Shown here: positions 7,018-12,327 of the stretch, in pieces
Layout: the number at the start of each line of letters is the position of its first letter
Numbering within the stretch: the stretch's first letter is position 1
From: Conexibacter sp.
GTDB lineage: Bacteria; Actinomycetota; Thermoleophilia; Solirubrobacterales; Solirubrobacteraceae
Assembly (NCBI GenBank): GCA_025964325.1
Contig: JAOPZA010000071.1
Span: forward strand, 1 to 39,641
Direction of reading: 5' to 3'
DNA: 39,641 nt
Program-made: the position numbers and the translations under genes
The notes under the pieces: generated by a model
What the model was told of the DNA's origin: nothing
What the model saw: the letters and a program-made list of their open reading frames with translations, nothing else
The model's database searches: none

Positions 7018-7710
7018 ATGGTCGTTCGCAACGGGCCGCATGACCTCGGCGGAGCGCCCGGCTTCGGCCCGATCGACCCGCGTCCCGACGCCGAGCTCTA
7101 TCCGGAGGGCTGGGAGGGGCGCTGCATCGGGGCGATCGTCGCGACGATGGCGGCGGGCGCCTACAACGTCGACGAGTGGCGCGCGCGGATGGAGGAGCTG
7201 CCGGCCGCCGCGCAGTTCGCAATGGGCTACTACCGCCGCTGGTTCTACACGCTCGAGCGCAACCTCGTGCTGCACGACGTGCTGCGCGAGGCGGAGATCG
7301 ACGCGCGCGCCGCGGCGCTCGGTGAGGGCGCGCCGCCACCGCCTCGGCGGCGCGACCCCGAGCTGCTCGCGGCGATCGAGCGCCTGCTGCGCGAGGGCGC
7401 CCCGCTCGCCCGCGAGCTCGCCGTGCCGCCGCGCTTCGCCGTCGGCGCGCGGGTCCGCACGCGGCGGATCCTGGTCGAGCGGCGCGGCGAGCAGCACACG
7501 CGGATGCCGGGCTACGTCCAGGACCGTCGCGGCGTGGTCGAGCGCCGTTACCCGGCGATGACGCTGCCCGATGCGAGCGTGCGCGGCGAGGACCGCGCCG
7601 AGTTCCTGTACGCGGTCAGCTTCGCCGCCAGCGACCTGTGGCCGGACGGCGCCGCCGACGTGCGCGTCTCGGCGGATCTGTTCGAGAGCTACCTGATCGC
7701 GGAGGCGTGA
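7018..7710 (+). CDS. nthB: Nitrile hydratase subunit beta
   Basis: 230 residues. This is the beta chain of nitrile hydratase, which with alpha hydrates nitriles to amides at a low-spin metal centre. The N-terminal signature is present (GPHDLGGAPGFGPI), followed by the helical domain (EGWEGRCIGAIVATMAAGAYNVDEWRARME, then YYRRWFYTLERNLVLHDVL). The C-terminal SH3-like barrel has MPGYVQDRRGVVER and ends LWPDG...VRVSADLFESYL, as in the family. Arginines in YYRRW and QDRRG are in the positions that contact the oxidised cysteines of alpha. Gene order beta-alpha-accessory is the one usual for cobalt-type enzymes. The Shine-Dalgarno sequence lies in the preceding hairpin. Confidence 0.93.
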   Translation: MVVRNGPHDLGGAPGFGPIDPRPDAELYPEGWEGRCIGAIVATMAAGAYNVDEWRARMEELPAAAQFAMGYYRRWFYTLERNLVLHDVLREAEIDARAAALGEGAPPPPRRRDPELLAAIERLLREGAPLARELAVPPRFAVGARVRTRRILVERRGEQHTRMPGYVQDRRGVVERRYPAMTLPDASVRGEDRAEFLYAVSFAASDLWPDGAADVRVSADLFESYLIAEA

Positions 7711-7712
7711 CG

Positions 7713-8303
7713 ATGCCGCTGGCCAACGACGAGACCGCGCTGCGGATGCGCGCGATCGAGTCGCTGCTGATCGAGAAGGGCCTGCTGACGGAGGAGGTCG
7801 TCGATCGCATCGCCTCGACGTACGAGCACGACATCGGGCCGCTGCGCGGCGCGCGCGTCGTGGCGCGCGCGTGGACGGACCCCACCTTCCGCGCCCGCCT
7901 GCTGGCGGACGGGACCGCGGCGATGGCCGAGCTCGGCGTCGGCGGCTTCGTCGCCGAGCACGTCGTCGTGGTCGCCAACACGCCGGAGGTCCACAACCTC
8001 GTCACCTGCACGCTCTGCTCCTGCTACCCGTGGGGCGTCCTCGGACTCCCGCCCTCCTGGTACAAGAGCCCCGAGTACCGCGCCCGCGCCGTCCGCGAGC
8101 CGCGCGCGGTGATCGCCGAGTTCGGCGTCGAGCTGCCGCCCGCGACGGCGATCCGCGTCTGGGACTCGAGCGCCGAGGTGCGCTATCTCGTCCTGCCGCA
8201 GCGACCGGACGGGACCGACGGGCTCGCCGAGGAGGAGCTGGCGGCGCTCGTCACGCGCGACTCGATGGTCGGCACGGGCCTGGCGGTGGCGCCGGGGCGA
8301 TGA
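7713..8303 (+). CDS. nthA: Nitrile hydratase subunit alpha, cobalt type
   Basis: 196 residues, close to the usual length of about 200. The claw-setting metal motif is CTLCSCYPW with C99, C102 and C104. Thr at the second position (CTLCSC rather than CSLCSC) is the established marker of the cobalt type. Flanking NTPEVHNLVT, LGLPPSWYKSPEYRARAVREPR and EFGVELP are family-conserved. The start is the ATG two bases after the beta stop codon, in agreement with the MPLANDETALR N-terminus. The following accessory gene overlaps by four bases. It works in the cytoplasm as an alpha-beta heterodimer. No amidase gene is in the window to consume the amide product. Confidence 0.95.
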   Translation: MPLANDETALRMRAIESLLIEKGLLTEEVVDRIASTYEHDIGPLRGARVVARAWTDPTFRARLLADGTAAMAELGVGGFVAEHVVVVANTPEVHNLVTCTLCSCYPWGVLGLPPSWYKSPEYRARAVREPRAVIAEFGVELPPATAIRVWDSSAEVRYLVLPQRPDGTDGLAEEELAALVTRDSMVGTGLAVAPGR

Positions 8304-8891: not shown

Positions 8892-8942
8892 CGCCTCGCC
8901 CCCTCGTGGGCCGGCGCTCCCTCCGCCGCTCGGACCTGCCGA

Positions 8943-8948
8943 TATCCT
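8943..8948 (+). promoter_or_regulatory. -10 box (TATCCT), predicted leaderless promoter of the PHP gene
   Basis: TATCCT ends eight bases before the GTG at 8957. It supports the GTG start over an ATG further upstream at 8906, which would lie ahead of the promoter. Confidence 0.5.
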
Positions 8949-8956
8949 CGGCCTGC

Positions 8957-9880
8957 GTGCCGGCGCCGACCTTCGACCTGCAGTCGCACTCGCTCCACTC
9001 GGACGGCGTGCTGCCGCCCGCGGAGGTCGTCGCTGCGGCCGCGGCCGCCGGCGTCGAGCTGCTGGCGCTGTCGGACCACGACACCGTCGACGGCGTCGAC
9101 GAGGCGCTCGCCGCCGCGCGCGAGCACGGGATCGCGCTCGTGACGGCGACCGAGATCTCGGCCGTCGACGGCGAGTACGAGGACCTGCACCTGCTCGGCT
9201 ACGGGATCGACCATCATGATCCCGTGCTGGCGGAGCGGCTGCTCGGGGCGCGCGCGGACCGCGAGCTGCGCGCGCAGCGGATGGCGGGGCGTTTGAACGA
9301 GCTCGGCTTCGAGGTCGACGATGCACCGCTCGCCGCCCGCCGCGCGAGCGGCAAGCCGATCGGCCGCCCGCACCTCGCGCAGGCCGTCCTGAGCCATGCC
9401 GGCAACGCCGCGCGACTGGCGCGGGAGGGCCACGACGACATCTCCTCGTTCATCCCCGCCTACCTGATCCCGGGCACGGCCGGGTACCTCGCTCGGACGC
9501 GTCCGACGGTGGTCGAGGCGATCGACTGGGTCCATCAGGCCGGGGGTCTCGCGGTCTGGGCGCATCCGTTCTGGGACATCGACGCCGACGGCCGCGTGCT
9601 GGCGGCGATCGACCGCTTCCAGGCGATCGGACTCGACGGCGTGGAGGCCTTCTACCCGCCTCACACGGCCGAGCAGACCCGGCTGCTGGCGGAGCGCTGC
9701 GAGGCGCTCGGCCTGCAGAGCACGGGCTCGTCGGACTTCCACGGGCCCGAGCACCGCCTCTTCAGCCGCTTTCGCGCCCACGAGCTGCACGGCTGCGTGC
9801 CGCGACTCGACGCGATCACGGCGCGCGCCGTCCACCCCGACGGGCGCCCTGGCCGGCCCGGGCCGTCGTCAGCCCGCTGA
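8957..9880 (+). CDS. PHP-domain phosphoesterase (RNase AM / nucleoside bisphosphate phosphatase type)
   Basis: 307 residues from a GTG start. The PHP metal-binding signatures are in order: HSLHSDG, SDHDTVDG, an ATEIS glutamate, the HPF region (AVWAHPFWDI) and the terminal GSSDFHGP. This arrangement is that of the TrpH/YciV group, which hydrolyses 3',5'-nucleoside bisphosphates or trims RNA 5' ends. Cytoplasmic, with no signal peptide. GTG 8957 is preferred because the fold begins immediately (VPAPTFDLQSHSLHSDG) and a -10 box sits just before it. It is convergent with another PHP gene only 29 bases away. Confidence 0.85.
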   Translation: MPAPTFDLQSHSLHSDGVLPPAEVVAAAAAAGVELLALSDHDTVDGVDEALAAAREHGIALVTATEISAVDGEYEDLHLLGYGIDHHDPVLAERLLGARADRELRAQRMAGRLNELGFEVDDAPLAARRASGKPIGRPHLAQAVLSHAGNAARLAREGHDDISSFIPAYLIPGTAGYLARTRPTVVEAIDWVHQAGGLAVWAHPFWDIDADGRVLAAIDRFQAIGLDGVEAFYPPHTAEQTRLLAERCEALGLQSTGSSDFHGPEHRLFSRFRAHELHGCVPRLDAITARAVHPDGRPGRPGPSSAR

Positions 9881-9909
9881 CGGCGGCGGTCGCCGCGCTG
9901 CTGCCGCGC

Positions 9910-10743
9910 TCACTGGCGCGCGAGCAGCTCGCTGCCGAGTCGACCGGCGCTCACGTGCATCGAGGCGGGGTCGAAGGCACCCGCCGGCTCGGCCGGCGGC
10001 AGCGCGCGGACGATGCCGTTGCGCAGCAGCAGCCGCGGGTTCGCCTGCGTGAGGCGGTAGGCCTGGCCGCTCGAGGCGCCGGCGCGGAGCAGCAGGTGGA
10101 AGCCGAGCTGCAGCGTGTGCTCGCGCGTGCCGGGATGGCCGTCGGAGGCGACGCAGGCGGCGAGGCCGGCGCGCACGAGCCGCACCGCCGCGTCCTGCAC
10201 GTCGAGGCCGTGGTTGCCGAGCAGCGAGCAGACGTTCACCTGCAGCAGCGCGCCCTCGCGCAGCAGCGGCTCGAGTCGCTCGAGCCCGTCGCCCTCCAGC
10301 AGCCCGGGGGAGCGCTCGGGGTGGGCGATCAGCAGGCCGTAGCCGAAGCGGGTGAGGCGATCGGCCGCGGCGACGAAGTCGTCGTCGACGCCCTCGAACG
10401 GGCACTCGAGCAGCAGCCAGCGCGCGCTCGGCGGCCCGAGGGCGATCGCCTCGAGCGCGTCGTGGCCGAGGACGAGGGCGTCCGCGTGCGCGAGCTCGCC
10501 GCCGACGTGCAGCCGCACCGCCAGCCCGTCCGCCGCGATCGCCCGCTGCGTGGCGACGACGAGCCCGGCGAGCTGCTCGATCGCGACGCCGGGGAAGTCG
10601 GCGCGCTTGACGTGCGACGTGCAGGCGACGTCGCGCACGCCCTCGGCGTGCAGCCGCCGCGCGTGGGCGACCGCGTCCGCCATCGTCTCGGCGCCGTCGT
10701 CGACGCCCGGCAGAAGATGACAGTGAAGATCGACGTAGGACAT
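9910..10743 (-). CDS. PHP-type protein-tyrosine phosphatase (CpsB/YwqE-like)
   Basis: 277 residues. The N-terminus MSYVDLHCHLLPGVDDGAE is the hallmark of the Mn-dependent CpsB/CapC/YwqE phosphatases. TSHVKRADF, a GGE region (HVGGELA), LIAHPER and ASDGHPG give the remaining metal ligands. In other bacteria these enzymes dephosphorylate tyrosine kinases that control capsule and exopolysaccharide export. No matching kinase gene is in the window, but the dTDP-rhamnose genes at 26129-29045 are consistent with rhamnose-containing polysaccharide production. The ATG at 10743 fits the family N-terminus. An in-frame ATG 12 codons upstream lies beyond a candidate -10 box. Confidence 0.85.
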   Translation of the reverse strand: MSYVDLHCHLLPGVDDGAETMADAVAHARRLHAEGVRDVACTSHVKRADFPGVAIEQLAGLVVATQRAIAADGLAVRLHVGGELAHADALVLGHDALEAIALGPPSARWLLLECPFEGVDDDFVAAADRLTRFGYGLLIAHPERSPGLLEGDGLERLEPLLREGALLQVNVCSLLGNHGLDVQDAAVRLVRAGLAACVASDGHPGTREHTLQLGFHLLLRAGASSGQAYRLTQANPRLLLRNGIVRALPPAEPAGAFDPASMHVSAGRLGSELLARQ

Positions 10744-10754
10744 GATCGGCTGTG

Positions 10755-10760
10755 ACCCTA
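10755..10760 (-). promoter_or_regulatory. -10 box (TAGGGT on the minus strand) for the CpsB-like gene
   Basis: TAGGGT lies 11 bases before the ATG at 10743. Further upstream (about 10785-10805) GAACG occurs twice, 12 bases apart, as a possible regulator site. No gene is present in 10744-10851. Confidence 0.35.
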
Positions 10761-10851
10761 TCGGCGGTTTTGCCCGCACACTGGAGCGTTCCTGTAAACG
10801 TTCACTGAATTAACACGCCTTACGATCGCCTCCCGGAGCGTTGGCGGGGGC

Positions 10852-12327
10852 TCACACGAAGTACGGCAGCGACGTGCCGTGGGAGTCGGCCAGGACCTTC
10901 TCGTAGAGGTCGGCCATCACGTCGTAGTGCTTGACGGCGACGTTCGTCCGCTCGCCCGGATCGGCTCTGAGGTCGTAGAGCGAACGACCTCTGTTGTCGC
11001 CGCCCCCGATCATCGCCCACCGGCTCGAGCGCACGTAGACGTGGTTGGCGTAGCCGCCGTACCAGAACGGGCGGCCGCGCTTGGGCTGCCGGCCCGCCGT
11101 CAGGGGCGAGAGGTCGTGCCCGTTCATCGTCGCCGGCACCGGCGTGCCCGTCATCGAGAGAACCGTCGGACCGACGTCGTGCGGAGAGGCGAAGTAGCCG
11201 GTCGCGGTGCCGCCGCCGCCCTTGCCCGGCGCGCGCAGCAGGAACGGTACCTGGATCAGCTCCGGGTGCAGCTCGAGCGCGGGCTTGCCGGTCCAGCCGT
11301 ACTCGCCGAGCAGGATCCCGTGGTCGCTCAGCAGCACGACGATCGTGTCGTCGGCGAGGCCGCTCGCGTAGACCGCGTCGAGGAAGCGACCGAGCCAGGC
11401 GTCGGTCATCGTGACGGAGGCGGCGTAGACGGCGGGCAGGCGGGCCAGCTCCGTCGGCGTCAGGTAGTCGGCGTGCTTGTAGAGCACGTCGCCGGGCTCG
11501 GCGCCGCGGTAGCCGGGGTCGCCGTAGAGGTCGAGGTACTTGCGCGGCGGGTCCCACGGCTCGTGGGGGTCGAAGCAGTCGACGACGAGCGCGAACGGCC
11601 CATGCTTCTTCGCCTCGGCGAGCATCTCGATCGCGTGCGTGTAGACCCGCGCCGCGCAGGTCTGCGACTCGTCCGTGCCGGCGCCGGTGTTGGCGAGGTA
11701 CTGGCGCATGCCGTCGTGGTAGCGCTTGATGCCCCGCATCTGCTGCGGCAGCCAGTGGTCGAGCGTCGCCCCCGAGATCGTCTTCGCCGGCCGGCGGACG
11801 CCGAGCTGGCCGGAGATCGGCAGGAAGTGGTCGAGCGTGCGTCGGAAGCCGGCGAAGTTCGGCGTGAAGCCGACGAACGGGTTGTCGGTCACGTAGCCGG
11901 TCCAGTAGCCATGCTCGCGCAGCGCCGAGAGCCAGGTCGTGTCCTTGTCCGTCAGGCCGTTCCAGCCCGGGGTCGGCGGCAGCCCCTTCTCCGCCTTCCA
12001 GTTGCGCCACGGATAGACCCGGCGGCCCAGCATCAGCGAGCGGCGCGCGGGCACCGTCGGCATCGCCTCCGGGAACGCGCGCGTGAAGCGCACGCTCTCC
12101 TTCGCGAGCGCGTCGATGTTCGGCGTCAGGACCTCCTTCAGGCCGTAGCAGCCGACGTGGTCGTGGCGCAGCGAGTCGATCATCAGGACGAGGACGTTCG
12201 GGCCGTCGGGGCGCTTCGTCGCCGCGGCCAGCGTGCGGCCGGGGTTCGTCGCCGCGCCCAGCGCGACCGCGCCGGCCGCCCCGGCCGTCTTCAGGAACCG
12301 CCGTCGATCGATGCCCTGCTCCTCCAC
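10852..12327 (-). CDS. Tat-exported sulfatase-family hydrolase with Thr at the catalytic position
   Basis: 491 residues from a GTG start. A twin-arginine signal (DRRRFLKTAGAAGAVALGAA, about 7-26) is followed by the alkaline-phosphatase/sulfatase fold: metal site MIDSLRHDHVGCYG (about 49-62) and the later SDHGILLGEYGWTGKP metal and His/Lys region. The sulfatase signature C/S-x-P-x-R is here T-V-P-A-R with T91, so the formylglycine precursor residue is replaced by Thr. Classical sulfatases need Cys or Ser there. Thr nucleophiles are known in phosphotransferases of the superfamily such as LtaS and phosphoethanolamine transferases. A phosphoester- or sulfate-directed activity at the cell surface is therefore open. 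It stands alone in its transcription unit. Confidence 0.85.
   Translation of the reverse strand: MEEQGIDRRRFLKTAGAAGAVALGAATNPGRTLAAATKRPDGPNVLVLMIDSLRHDHVGCYGLKEVLTPNIDALAKESVRFTRAFPEAMPTVPARRSLMLGRRVYPWRNWKAEKGLPPTPGWNGLTDKDTTWLSALREHGYWTGYVTDNPFVGFTPNFAGFRRTLDHFLPISGQLGVRRPAKTISGATLDHWLPQQMRGIKRYHDGMRQYLANTGAGTDESQTCAARVYTHAIEMLAEAKKHGPFALVVDCFDPHEPWDPPRKYLDLYGDPGYRGAEPGDVLYKHADYLTPTELARLPAVYAASVTMTDAWLGRFLDAVYASGLADDTIVVLLSDHGILLGEYGWTGKPALELHPELIQVPFLLRAPGKGGGGTATGYFASPHDVGPTVLSMTGTPVPATMNGHDLSPLTAGRQPKRGRPFWYGGYANHVYVRSSRWAMIGGGDNRGRSLYDLRADPGERTNVAVKHYDVMADLYEKVLADSHGTSLPYFV

What the first reader, a model, noticed from the sequence alone, without database searches (positions are those of the whole stretch)
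12040..12060. Sulfatase fold with Thr91 at the formylglycine position
The catalytic motif is T-V-P-A-R instead of C/S-x-P-x-R, so maturation to formylglycine is impossible. The metal-binding motifs and the Tat signal are kept, so the protein is probably active. Thr nucleophiles in this superfamily transfer phosphate-linked groups, which suggests an exported phosphotransferase or phosphodiesterase misannotated as a sulfatase.
Basis: partly seen in the sequence, partly recalled or inferred. Interest (0 to 1): 0.55.

Follow-up and report, generated by a model that had tools for sequence, protein, structure and literature searches.

The report
Sulfatase-like enzymes with threonine nucleophile
This gene belongs to a large, apparently uncharacterised group of sulfatase-shaped enzymes that use an ordinary threonine (or serine) where true sulfatases need a specially modified cysteine, so they are probably mislabelled and likely do different chemistry on sugars or cell-surface polymers.

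Summary
Window 10852-12327 (-) encodes a 491-aa sulfatase-fold protein with a Tat-type signal and Thr91 at the formylglycine position. It is not a lone mutation: 98 of 101 non-redundant relatives chosen by similarity carry Thr. In a sample of 396 Actinomycetota genomes, 96 of 121 matches were read: 64 Thr, 9 Ser, 23 Cys. Thr and Ser rows form one side of the tree, Cys rows the other. Metal-site residues, H255 and K348 are kept. Residue 149 is His in 27 of 27 close Cys relatives and in 0 of 162 Thr/Ser rows. Seven tandem paralogues show what real loss of the active site looks like. In one actinobacterial family these genes sit in polysaccharide-synthesis loci with sulfotransferases; in Conexibacter beside a Cys sulfatase; elsewhere beside sugar transporters. 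Best reading: a formylglycine-independent, single-metal, hydroxyl-nucleophile esterase or transferase acting on glycans, more likely on phosphoesters, although sulfate is not excluded. New variant within a known superfamily.

The parts
10852..12327 (-). Tat-exported sulfatase-fold protein, 491 aa, Thr at the nucleophile position
12289..12306 (-). Tat motif RRRFLK (residues 8-13)
12040..12060 (-). PTVPARR motif, residues 90-96
12055..12057 (-). Thr91 codon ACG, proposed direct O-nucleophile
12043..12045 (-). Arg95, the Arg of the C/S-x-P-x-R motif, kept
12175..12177 (-). Asp51, metal ligand by homology
11884..11886 (-). Asp148 in T-D-N-P, where formylglycine sulfatases have G-K-x-H; kept in degenerate paralogues, so probably structural
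11563..11565 (-). His255 of DPHEPW (equivalent of EfAS H220 / SmCS H201)
11320..11325 (-). Asp335-His336, metal ligands by homology
11284..11286 (-). Lys348 (equivalent of EfAS K324 / SmCS K309)
9910..10779 (-). CpsB/CapC-family PHP protein 72 bp downstream on the same strand, possibly co-transcribed; this adjacency seen also in L035, the closest relative

Best explanation
A Tat-exported alkaline-phosphatase-superfamily enzyme built on the sulfatase chassis that works without formylglycine. Thr91 (Ser in a few relatives) attacks the substrate directly, helped by one divalent metal held by D51, T91, D335 and H336, with H255 and K348 on the leaving-group side, giving a covalent Thr-ester that is resolved by water or by an acceptor hydroxyl. 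Shown here: fixed Thr/Ser in a clade separate from Cys enzymes, an intact catalytic set, and no His at residues 149-151 of the window protein. Inferred from relatives' genomic context: the substrate is a glycan or a small sugar derivative. Inferred from chemistry and the nearest mechanisms: the group is more likely phosphate-linked (phosphodiester or phosphomonoester) than sulfate, and transfer is as possible as hydrolysis.
For: (1) T in 98 of 101 non-redundant relatives. (2) Census: 64 T, 9 S, 23 C among the 96 matches read of 121 listed. (3) Tree of 95 rows: T+S on one side of a branch (SH-aLRT 95), Cys on the other; Ser needs 3 changes (at least 2 forced by starred branches), i.e. a hydroxyl is kept while T and S swap. 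(4) Seven tandem degenerate paralogues have lost T91, H255, E256, P257, H336 and K348 in 7 of 7, while their Thr neighbours keep all of these in 7 of 7, marking these as catalytic and the Thr copies as selected to be active. (5) His149 in 27 of 27 close Cys relatives and 0 of 162 T/S rows; Pro93 of the maturation motif is relaxed in Thr rows (26 of 64 census) but kept in 27 of 27 close Cys and 7 of 7 canonical rows. (6) D-T-D-H parallels LtaS E255/T300/D475/H476 and MCR-1 E246/T285/D465/H466. (7) Any change of the HisA residue of SpAS1 strongly harmed its sulfatase activity, and such changes can help phosphodiesterase activity (PMC5488252 passages). (8) No anSME match over the cut-off in any of 16 genomes tested, 8 of which carry Ser forms (weak matches below the cut-off in 6 of 16).
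Against: No assay and no ligand-bound structure. Closest folds are formylglycine enzymes, both sulfatases and phosphonate hydrolases. Context includes sulfotransferases and Cys sulfatases, which fits sulfate as well. A His at 151 in 57 of 89 Thr rows could stand in for the sulfatase His, though the window has Phe. The H149 and Pro93 contrasts rest on essentially one Cys-to-Thr split, so they are not independent events. Cys-to-Ser mutants of formylglycine sulfatases keep about a tenth of activity, so a hydroxyl does not rule out sulfate hydrolysis.
Confidence: 0.58

Rival explanations
1. A hydroxyl-nucleophile sulfatase: Thr/Ser forms a sulfo-enzyme that is hydrolysed slowly or passed to an acceptor, on sulfated sugars.
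For: Embedded in loci with sulfotransferases (PF13469) in one actinobacterial family, directly followed by a second PF00884 gene of canonical type in 4 of 6 genus relatives, and with two Cys sulfatases plus sugar ABC permeases in L063. Unmodified choline sulfatase turns over (PMC6189696 passages) and Ser mutants keep about 10%.
Against: Lys and His of G-K-x-H, needed in EfAS, are absent from the window protein; no natural Thr sulfatase found in the papers searched; Recksiek et al. 1998 (only its title seen, in the reference lists; content recalled) trapped a sulfo-enzyme when formylglycine was replaced by Ser, i.e. hydrolysis is poor.
Confidence: 0.27
2. An outer-face transferase that decorates surface polysaccharide with a phospho- or sulfo-linked group, like LTA synthase or phosphoethanolamine transferases but soluble (a narrower form of the best explanation).
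For: Single-metal Thr enzymes LtaS and EptA/MCR are transferases; Tat export; loci with flippase, sugar transferase, WecG and O-antigen ligase.
Against: No membrane domain; other subgroups lack room for a signal and some lie next to sugar importers, which fits hydrolysis of imported molecules.
Confidence: 0.3
3. A catalytically dead, glycan-binding pseudo-sulfatase.
For: Loss of the canonical formylglycine; real degenerate paralogues exist beside Thr copies.
Against: Metal site, H255, R95 and K348 are invariant or nearly so in 89 rows and in the census, unlike in the true degenerate copies.
Confidence: 0.07
4. A point mutation or sequencing error in an ordinary sulfatase.
For: None found.
Against: Thr in 98 of 101 relatives from many phyla and in 64 of 96 census rows.
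Confidence: 0.01

Closest known systems
Formylglycine sulfatases, family S1 (PF00884), e.g. choline sulfatase SmCS and EfAS
   Same: Fold (best Z 36.5), Asp and Asp-His metal residues, Arg of CxPxR, leaving-group His and Lys
   Different: Thr instead of Cys/Ser; Asp148-Asn-Pro instead of Lys-x-His; Ser52 instead of Asp/Gln
Phosphonate monoester hydrolases (RlPMH, PehA)
   Same: Among the nearest folds (4uph first in Foldseek, 2vqr Z 32.2); also lacks the sulfatase Lys/His pair
   Different: PMHs use Cys-derived formylglycine and Tyr plus Thr or Asp at the Lys/His positions
LTA synthase, EptA/MCR, YejM (Thr single-metal enzymes)
   Same: Thr nucleophile with acidic residue, Asp and His around one metal in LtaS and MCR; YejM among the fold matches (Z 30.8)
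   Different: Those are membrane proteins; TxNxE motif in the LtaS-like Pfam seed proteins (equating them with LtaS is recalled), no TxPxR; NCBIfam LTA synthase score 18.2 against cut-off 970
Cys-type C-M-P-A-R-R sister group (E. coli plasmid L133, Rhizobium L128)
   Same: Nearest Cys relatives; share DPHEP, D148, D-S/T
   Different: Cys91, His149, Gly87, mostly Phe258

Membership tests
Family S1 formylglycine sulfatases | PF00884 / sulfatase fold | tested here: met
Family S1 formylglycine sulfatases | Cys or Ser in (C/S)xPxR that becomes formylglycine | tested here: not met
   Thr91
Family S1 formylglycine sulfatases | Lys and His of the G-K-x-H element | tested here: not met
   window T147-D-N-P-F151, MAFFT alignment; the HMMER alignment opens a gap here for relatives with TDVYH
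Family S1 formylglycine sulfatases | Hydrolysis of sulfate esters | not testable with these tools
   needs assay
Phosphonate monoester hydrolase / PehA | Cys-derived formylglycine | tested here: not met
Phosphonate monoester hydrolase / PehA | NCBIfam NF045661 cut-off | tested here: not met
   92.9 bits against 900
LtaS / EptA / YejM Thr enzymes | Thr nucleophile with acidic-Thr-Asp-His metal set | tested here: met
   by sequence only
LtaS / EptA / YejM Thr enzymes | LTA synthase profile (NF053595) | tested here: not met
   18.2 bits against 970
LtaS / EptA / YejM Thr enzymes | N-terminal transmembrane domain | tested here: not met
   only a Tat-like signal precedes the domain, which starts at residue 43
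Type I phosphodiesterase / NPP (PF01663) | Pfam match | tested here: inconclusive
   25.7 bits against 23, but no stretch passes on its own
Thr/Ser sulfatase-like clade described here | T or S at 91, no His at 149, R54, W258, DPHEP, SDHG | tested here: met

The most novel reading that the evidence does not exclude
A clade of enzymes split from formylglycine sulfatases by replacing the modified cysteine with Thr/Ser and losing a nearby His, and became outer-face group transferases (phospho- or sulfo-) that finish surface polysaccharides, in some genomes as an active/inactive tandem pair.
Probability: 0.22. Interest if true: 0.72.

Novelty: new variant of a known kind. Interest (0 to 1): 0.52.

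Why it matters
Many proteins annotated as sulfatases, in bacteria and archaea alike, would be something else. The clade sits next to a Cys clade on the same scaffold, so it makes a testable case of how a formylglycine enzyme becomes a plain hydroxyl-nucleophile enzyme: which residues change along with the nucleophile, and whether the group transferred changes from sulfate to phosphate. PMC5066984 (passages) already warned that PF00884 contains Thr proteins (30 of 59 seed sequences) that cannot be considered sulfatases, and that the TxNxE kind was uncharacterised; the T-x-P-x-R clade is a further such kind.

Tried and rejected
Single-mutation or sequencing-error reading: rejected. Idea that the host lacks formylglycine machinery: rejected, the window genome has two PF03781 matches and three other PF00884 genes with Cys; 13 of 15 order relatives with a match and 13 of 16 f20 genomes also have PF03781. 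Genome G380 (99% complete) has Thr and Ser forms, no PF03781 match and no anSME over the cut-off, but also one Cys sulfatase, so full independence of the machinery is not claimed. Idea that D148 is catalytic: weakened, the degenerate paralogues keep it in 7 of 7. Function from the window's own neighbours: weak; CpsB/CapC was found only in L035 among the 13 loci searched. Paper searches listed no description of a T-x-P-x-R sulfatase-like clade; only open-licence PMC papers are held, and I read passages (and one section of PMC5488252), not whole papers. The census scores only a few candidates per genome ('(4)'), so low-scoring members are missed: a Thr member at 355 bits (L243) turned up and fits the rule (no His149). 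25 of the 121 listed census matches were not read: 24 that begin after profile position 6, and G078, already held as L018.

Full report
OBSERVATION. The gene lies at window 10852-12327 on the - strand. It has a GTG start, a DRRRFLK Tat motif, a PF00884 domain at 43-394 (E 5.6e-33) and SGSH_C at 341-477. Thr91 is ACG at 12055-12057. The motif PTVPARR lines up with the nucleophile motif of solved sulfatases, and the predicted structure (pLDDT 93.3, pTM 0.91, 89-row alignment) places T91 right before helix 92-100. The nearest folds are formylglycine enzymes: ArPMH 4uph first in Foldseek; by VIA-align 6hr5 Z 36.5 (rmsd 2.6, 348 aligned), 7oz8 Z 35.4 (2.8, 389), 4uph Z 32.6 (3.0, 397), RlPMH 2vqr Z 32.2 (3.1, 390), and YejM 6vat Z 30.8 (3.0, 319).

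IS THR FIXED? Relatives came from 232 genomes of the order (16 matched) and from the species genome collection (249 relatives, best 80 kept). After removing near-copies, 101 of 106 rows remained: T 98, C 2, A 1. One of the 98 is a remote protein without the Arg. By record title they come from Actinomycetota, Chloroflexota, Armatimonadota, Planctomycetota, Spirochaetales, Poribacteria, deltaproteobacterial MAGs, Lacisediminimonas and archaeal MAGs. These rows were chosen for similarity to the window protein, so I made a second sample: the family profile against 396 Actinomycetota genomes, 57 with a match at 1e-60, 121 matches listed. I read 96 of the 121: T 64, S 9, C 23. Matches covering the whole domain split cleanly: T/S at 470 bits or more, C at 354 or less. 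A lower-scoring Thr member (L243, 355 bits) was found later and has no His149.

THE TREE. With 95 rows (52 T, 9 S, 34 C) the T+S rows are one side of a branch (SH-aLRT 95) and the C rows the other; S needs three changes, at least two forced by starred branches. An earlier tree of 111 rows also put all Cys rows on one side, at 86, with one Ala row inside the Thr side. These are quick trees without bootstrap, and the nucleophile column was not removed. The outgroups (PehA, BetC, canonical sulfatases) lie on the Cys side, so one Cys-to-Thr/Ser change is the simplest history.

WHAT CHANGED WITH THE NUCLEOPHILE. Against 27 close Cys relatives: residue 149 is His in 27 of 27 and in 0 of 89 A1 rows, 0 of 64 census T and 0 of 9 census S; residue 87 is Gly in 27 of 27, but Glu in 80 of 89, 63 of 64 and 9 of 9; residue 258 is Phe in 25 of 27, but Trp in 88 of 89, 64 of 64 and 9 of 9. 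Pro93, part of the maturation motif, is kept in 27 of 27 close Cys, 7 of 7 canonical and 9 of 9 S rows, and 78 of 89 A1 rows, but only 26 of 64 census T rows (31 have Cys there). (One canonical row, own_L001, is misaligned by one at residue 91.) Since all this follows one split, it is not repeated convergence. In the alignment with PehA and BetC, the sulfatase Lys and His positions correspond to D148 and P150 of the window; a His at 151 is present in 57 of 89 Thr rows but not in the window. PMC5488252 (section 3 and passages) states that this His is conserved in all known arylsulfatases of the superfamily, is thought to help break down the formylglycine intermediate, and is Thr or Asp in phosphonate hydrolases; that any mutation there was strongly detrimental to the sulfatase activity of SpAS1; and that formylglycine-to-Ser costs about tenfold on average.

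INTERNAL CONTROL. Seven loci of the same order carry two tandem genes: a Thr copy and, directly next, a paralogue. In 7 of 7 the first has T91, H255, E256, P257, D335, H336 and K348. In 7 of 7 the second has lost T91 (A six times, S once), H255, E256, P257, H336 and K348, while keeping R54, T68, R95, D148, F252, Y301 and D309. So catalytic decay in this family looks quite different from what the window gene shows, and R95 and D148 are more likely structural. The second genes begin with Arg-Arg signal-like stretches and remain 38-73% identical to one another.

CONTEXT. Window: CpsB/CapC-family gene 72 bp downstream on the same strand, as in the closest relative L035. Genus relatives: a second PF00884 gene with SDNG directly after the Thr gene in 4 of 6 (L036, L037, L118, L120), with the Cys motif read in L036 and L118. 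Family f20, probably Rubrobacteraceae (a guess from motif likeness to the Rubrobacter MAG L050): of 9 loci with a Thr gene taken from it, 7 share a small neighbour without a Pfam match, 6 a flippase-like protein (PF01943), 6 a sulfotransferase-family protein (PF13469), 5 a glycosyltransferase, 4 a bacterial sugar transferase (PF02397); WecG and O-antigen ligase also occur (Pfam was run on one member of each). Elsewhere: ABC sugar permeases near L054, L063, L086, L088, L108, L109 (identified in L063 and L109), mandelate-racemase-type enolases and a gluconolactonase-family gene. L063 has a Thr gene followed by two Cys genes. Other loci looked at gave no sugar theme: L056, L078 and L048 have oxidase, LysR/IclR, PHP or dehydrogenase-type neighbours. 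A Tat-like motif was found in 27 of 100 Thr rows and no room for a signal in 43 of 100, so the group holds exported and probably cytoplasmic members.

MECHANISM. Shown: identity and fixation of residues. By homology: D51, D335 and H336 hold one metal with the nucleophile (SmCS D14/D296/H297, EfAS D20/D311/H312), and H255 and K348 match the leaving-group pair (SmCS H201/K309). Inferred: the Thr hydroxyl attacks, and the ester formed is resolved without the elimination that a formylglycine hydrate allows. Thr with an acidic residue, Asp and His around one metal is the site of LtaS and MCR-1, which pass phosphate-linked groups on. I therefore favour a phosphate-linked group, but contexts that look like sulfated glycans keep a sulfo-group reading alive.

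NOVELTY. PMC5066984 (passages) reports Thr in 30 of 59 PF00884 seed proteins, names the TxNxE kind, and says that these cannot be considered functional sulfatases without experiment. The T-x-P-x-R clade is thus a new variant within a known superfamily; I found no description of it in nine paper searches over open-licence papers only.

Noticed in passing
L117, L119, L122-L126 (G083, G086, G084, G078, G218, G081, G220): Conserved tandem of a Thr enzyme and a degenerate paralogue with the active site lost but the fold-type residues kept: a candidate active/inactive partner pair.
   Followed up: partly
window 9880-9910 against L035:7856-9490 and L117:1440-10125: L035 carries a further Thr-type gene start beyond CpsB/CapC, and G083 has the tandem pair beside a PHP-family gene like the one at window 8906-9880; in the window CpsB and the PHP gene are only 29 bp apart, as if such genes had been lost.
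   Followed up: partly
L133:5992-7473: Cys-type sister 'sulfatase' of an E. coli plasmid lies right after PTS IIC and IIB genes, suggesting a sugar substrate.
   Followed up: no
census Thr rows, residue 93: 31 of 64 census Thr rows carry Cys two residues after the Thr (T-x-C-A-R) instead of Pro; role unknown.
   Followed up: no
window 7638-8303: Nitrile hydratase alpha subunit (302.8 bits against cut-off 249.85); the preceding frame 7018-7710 was not tested.
   Followed up: no
L063:5938-10337: Three PF00884 genes in a row, one Thr and two Cys types, after sugar ABC permeases.
   Followed up: partly
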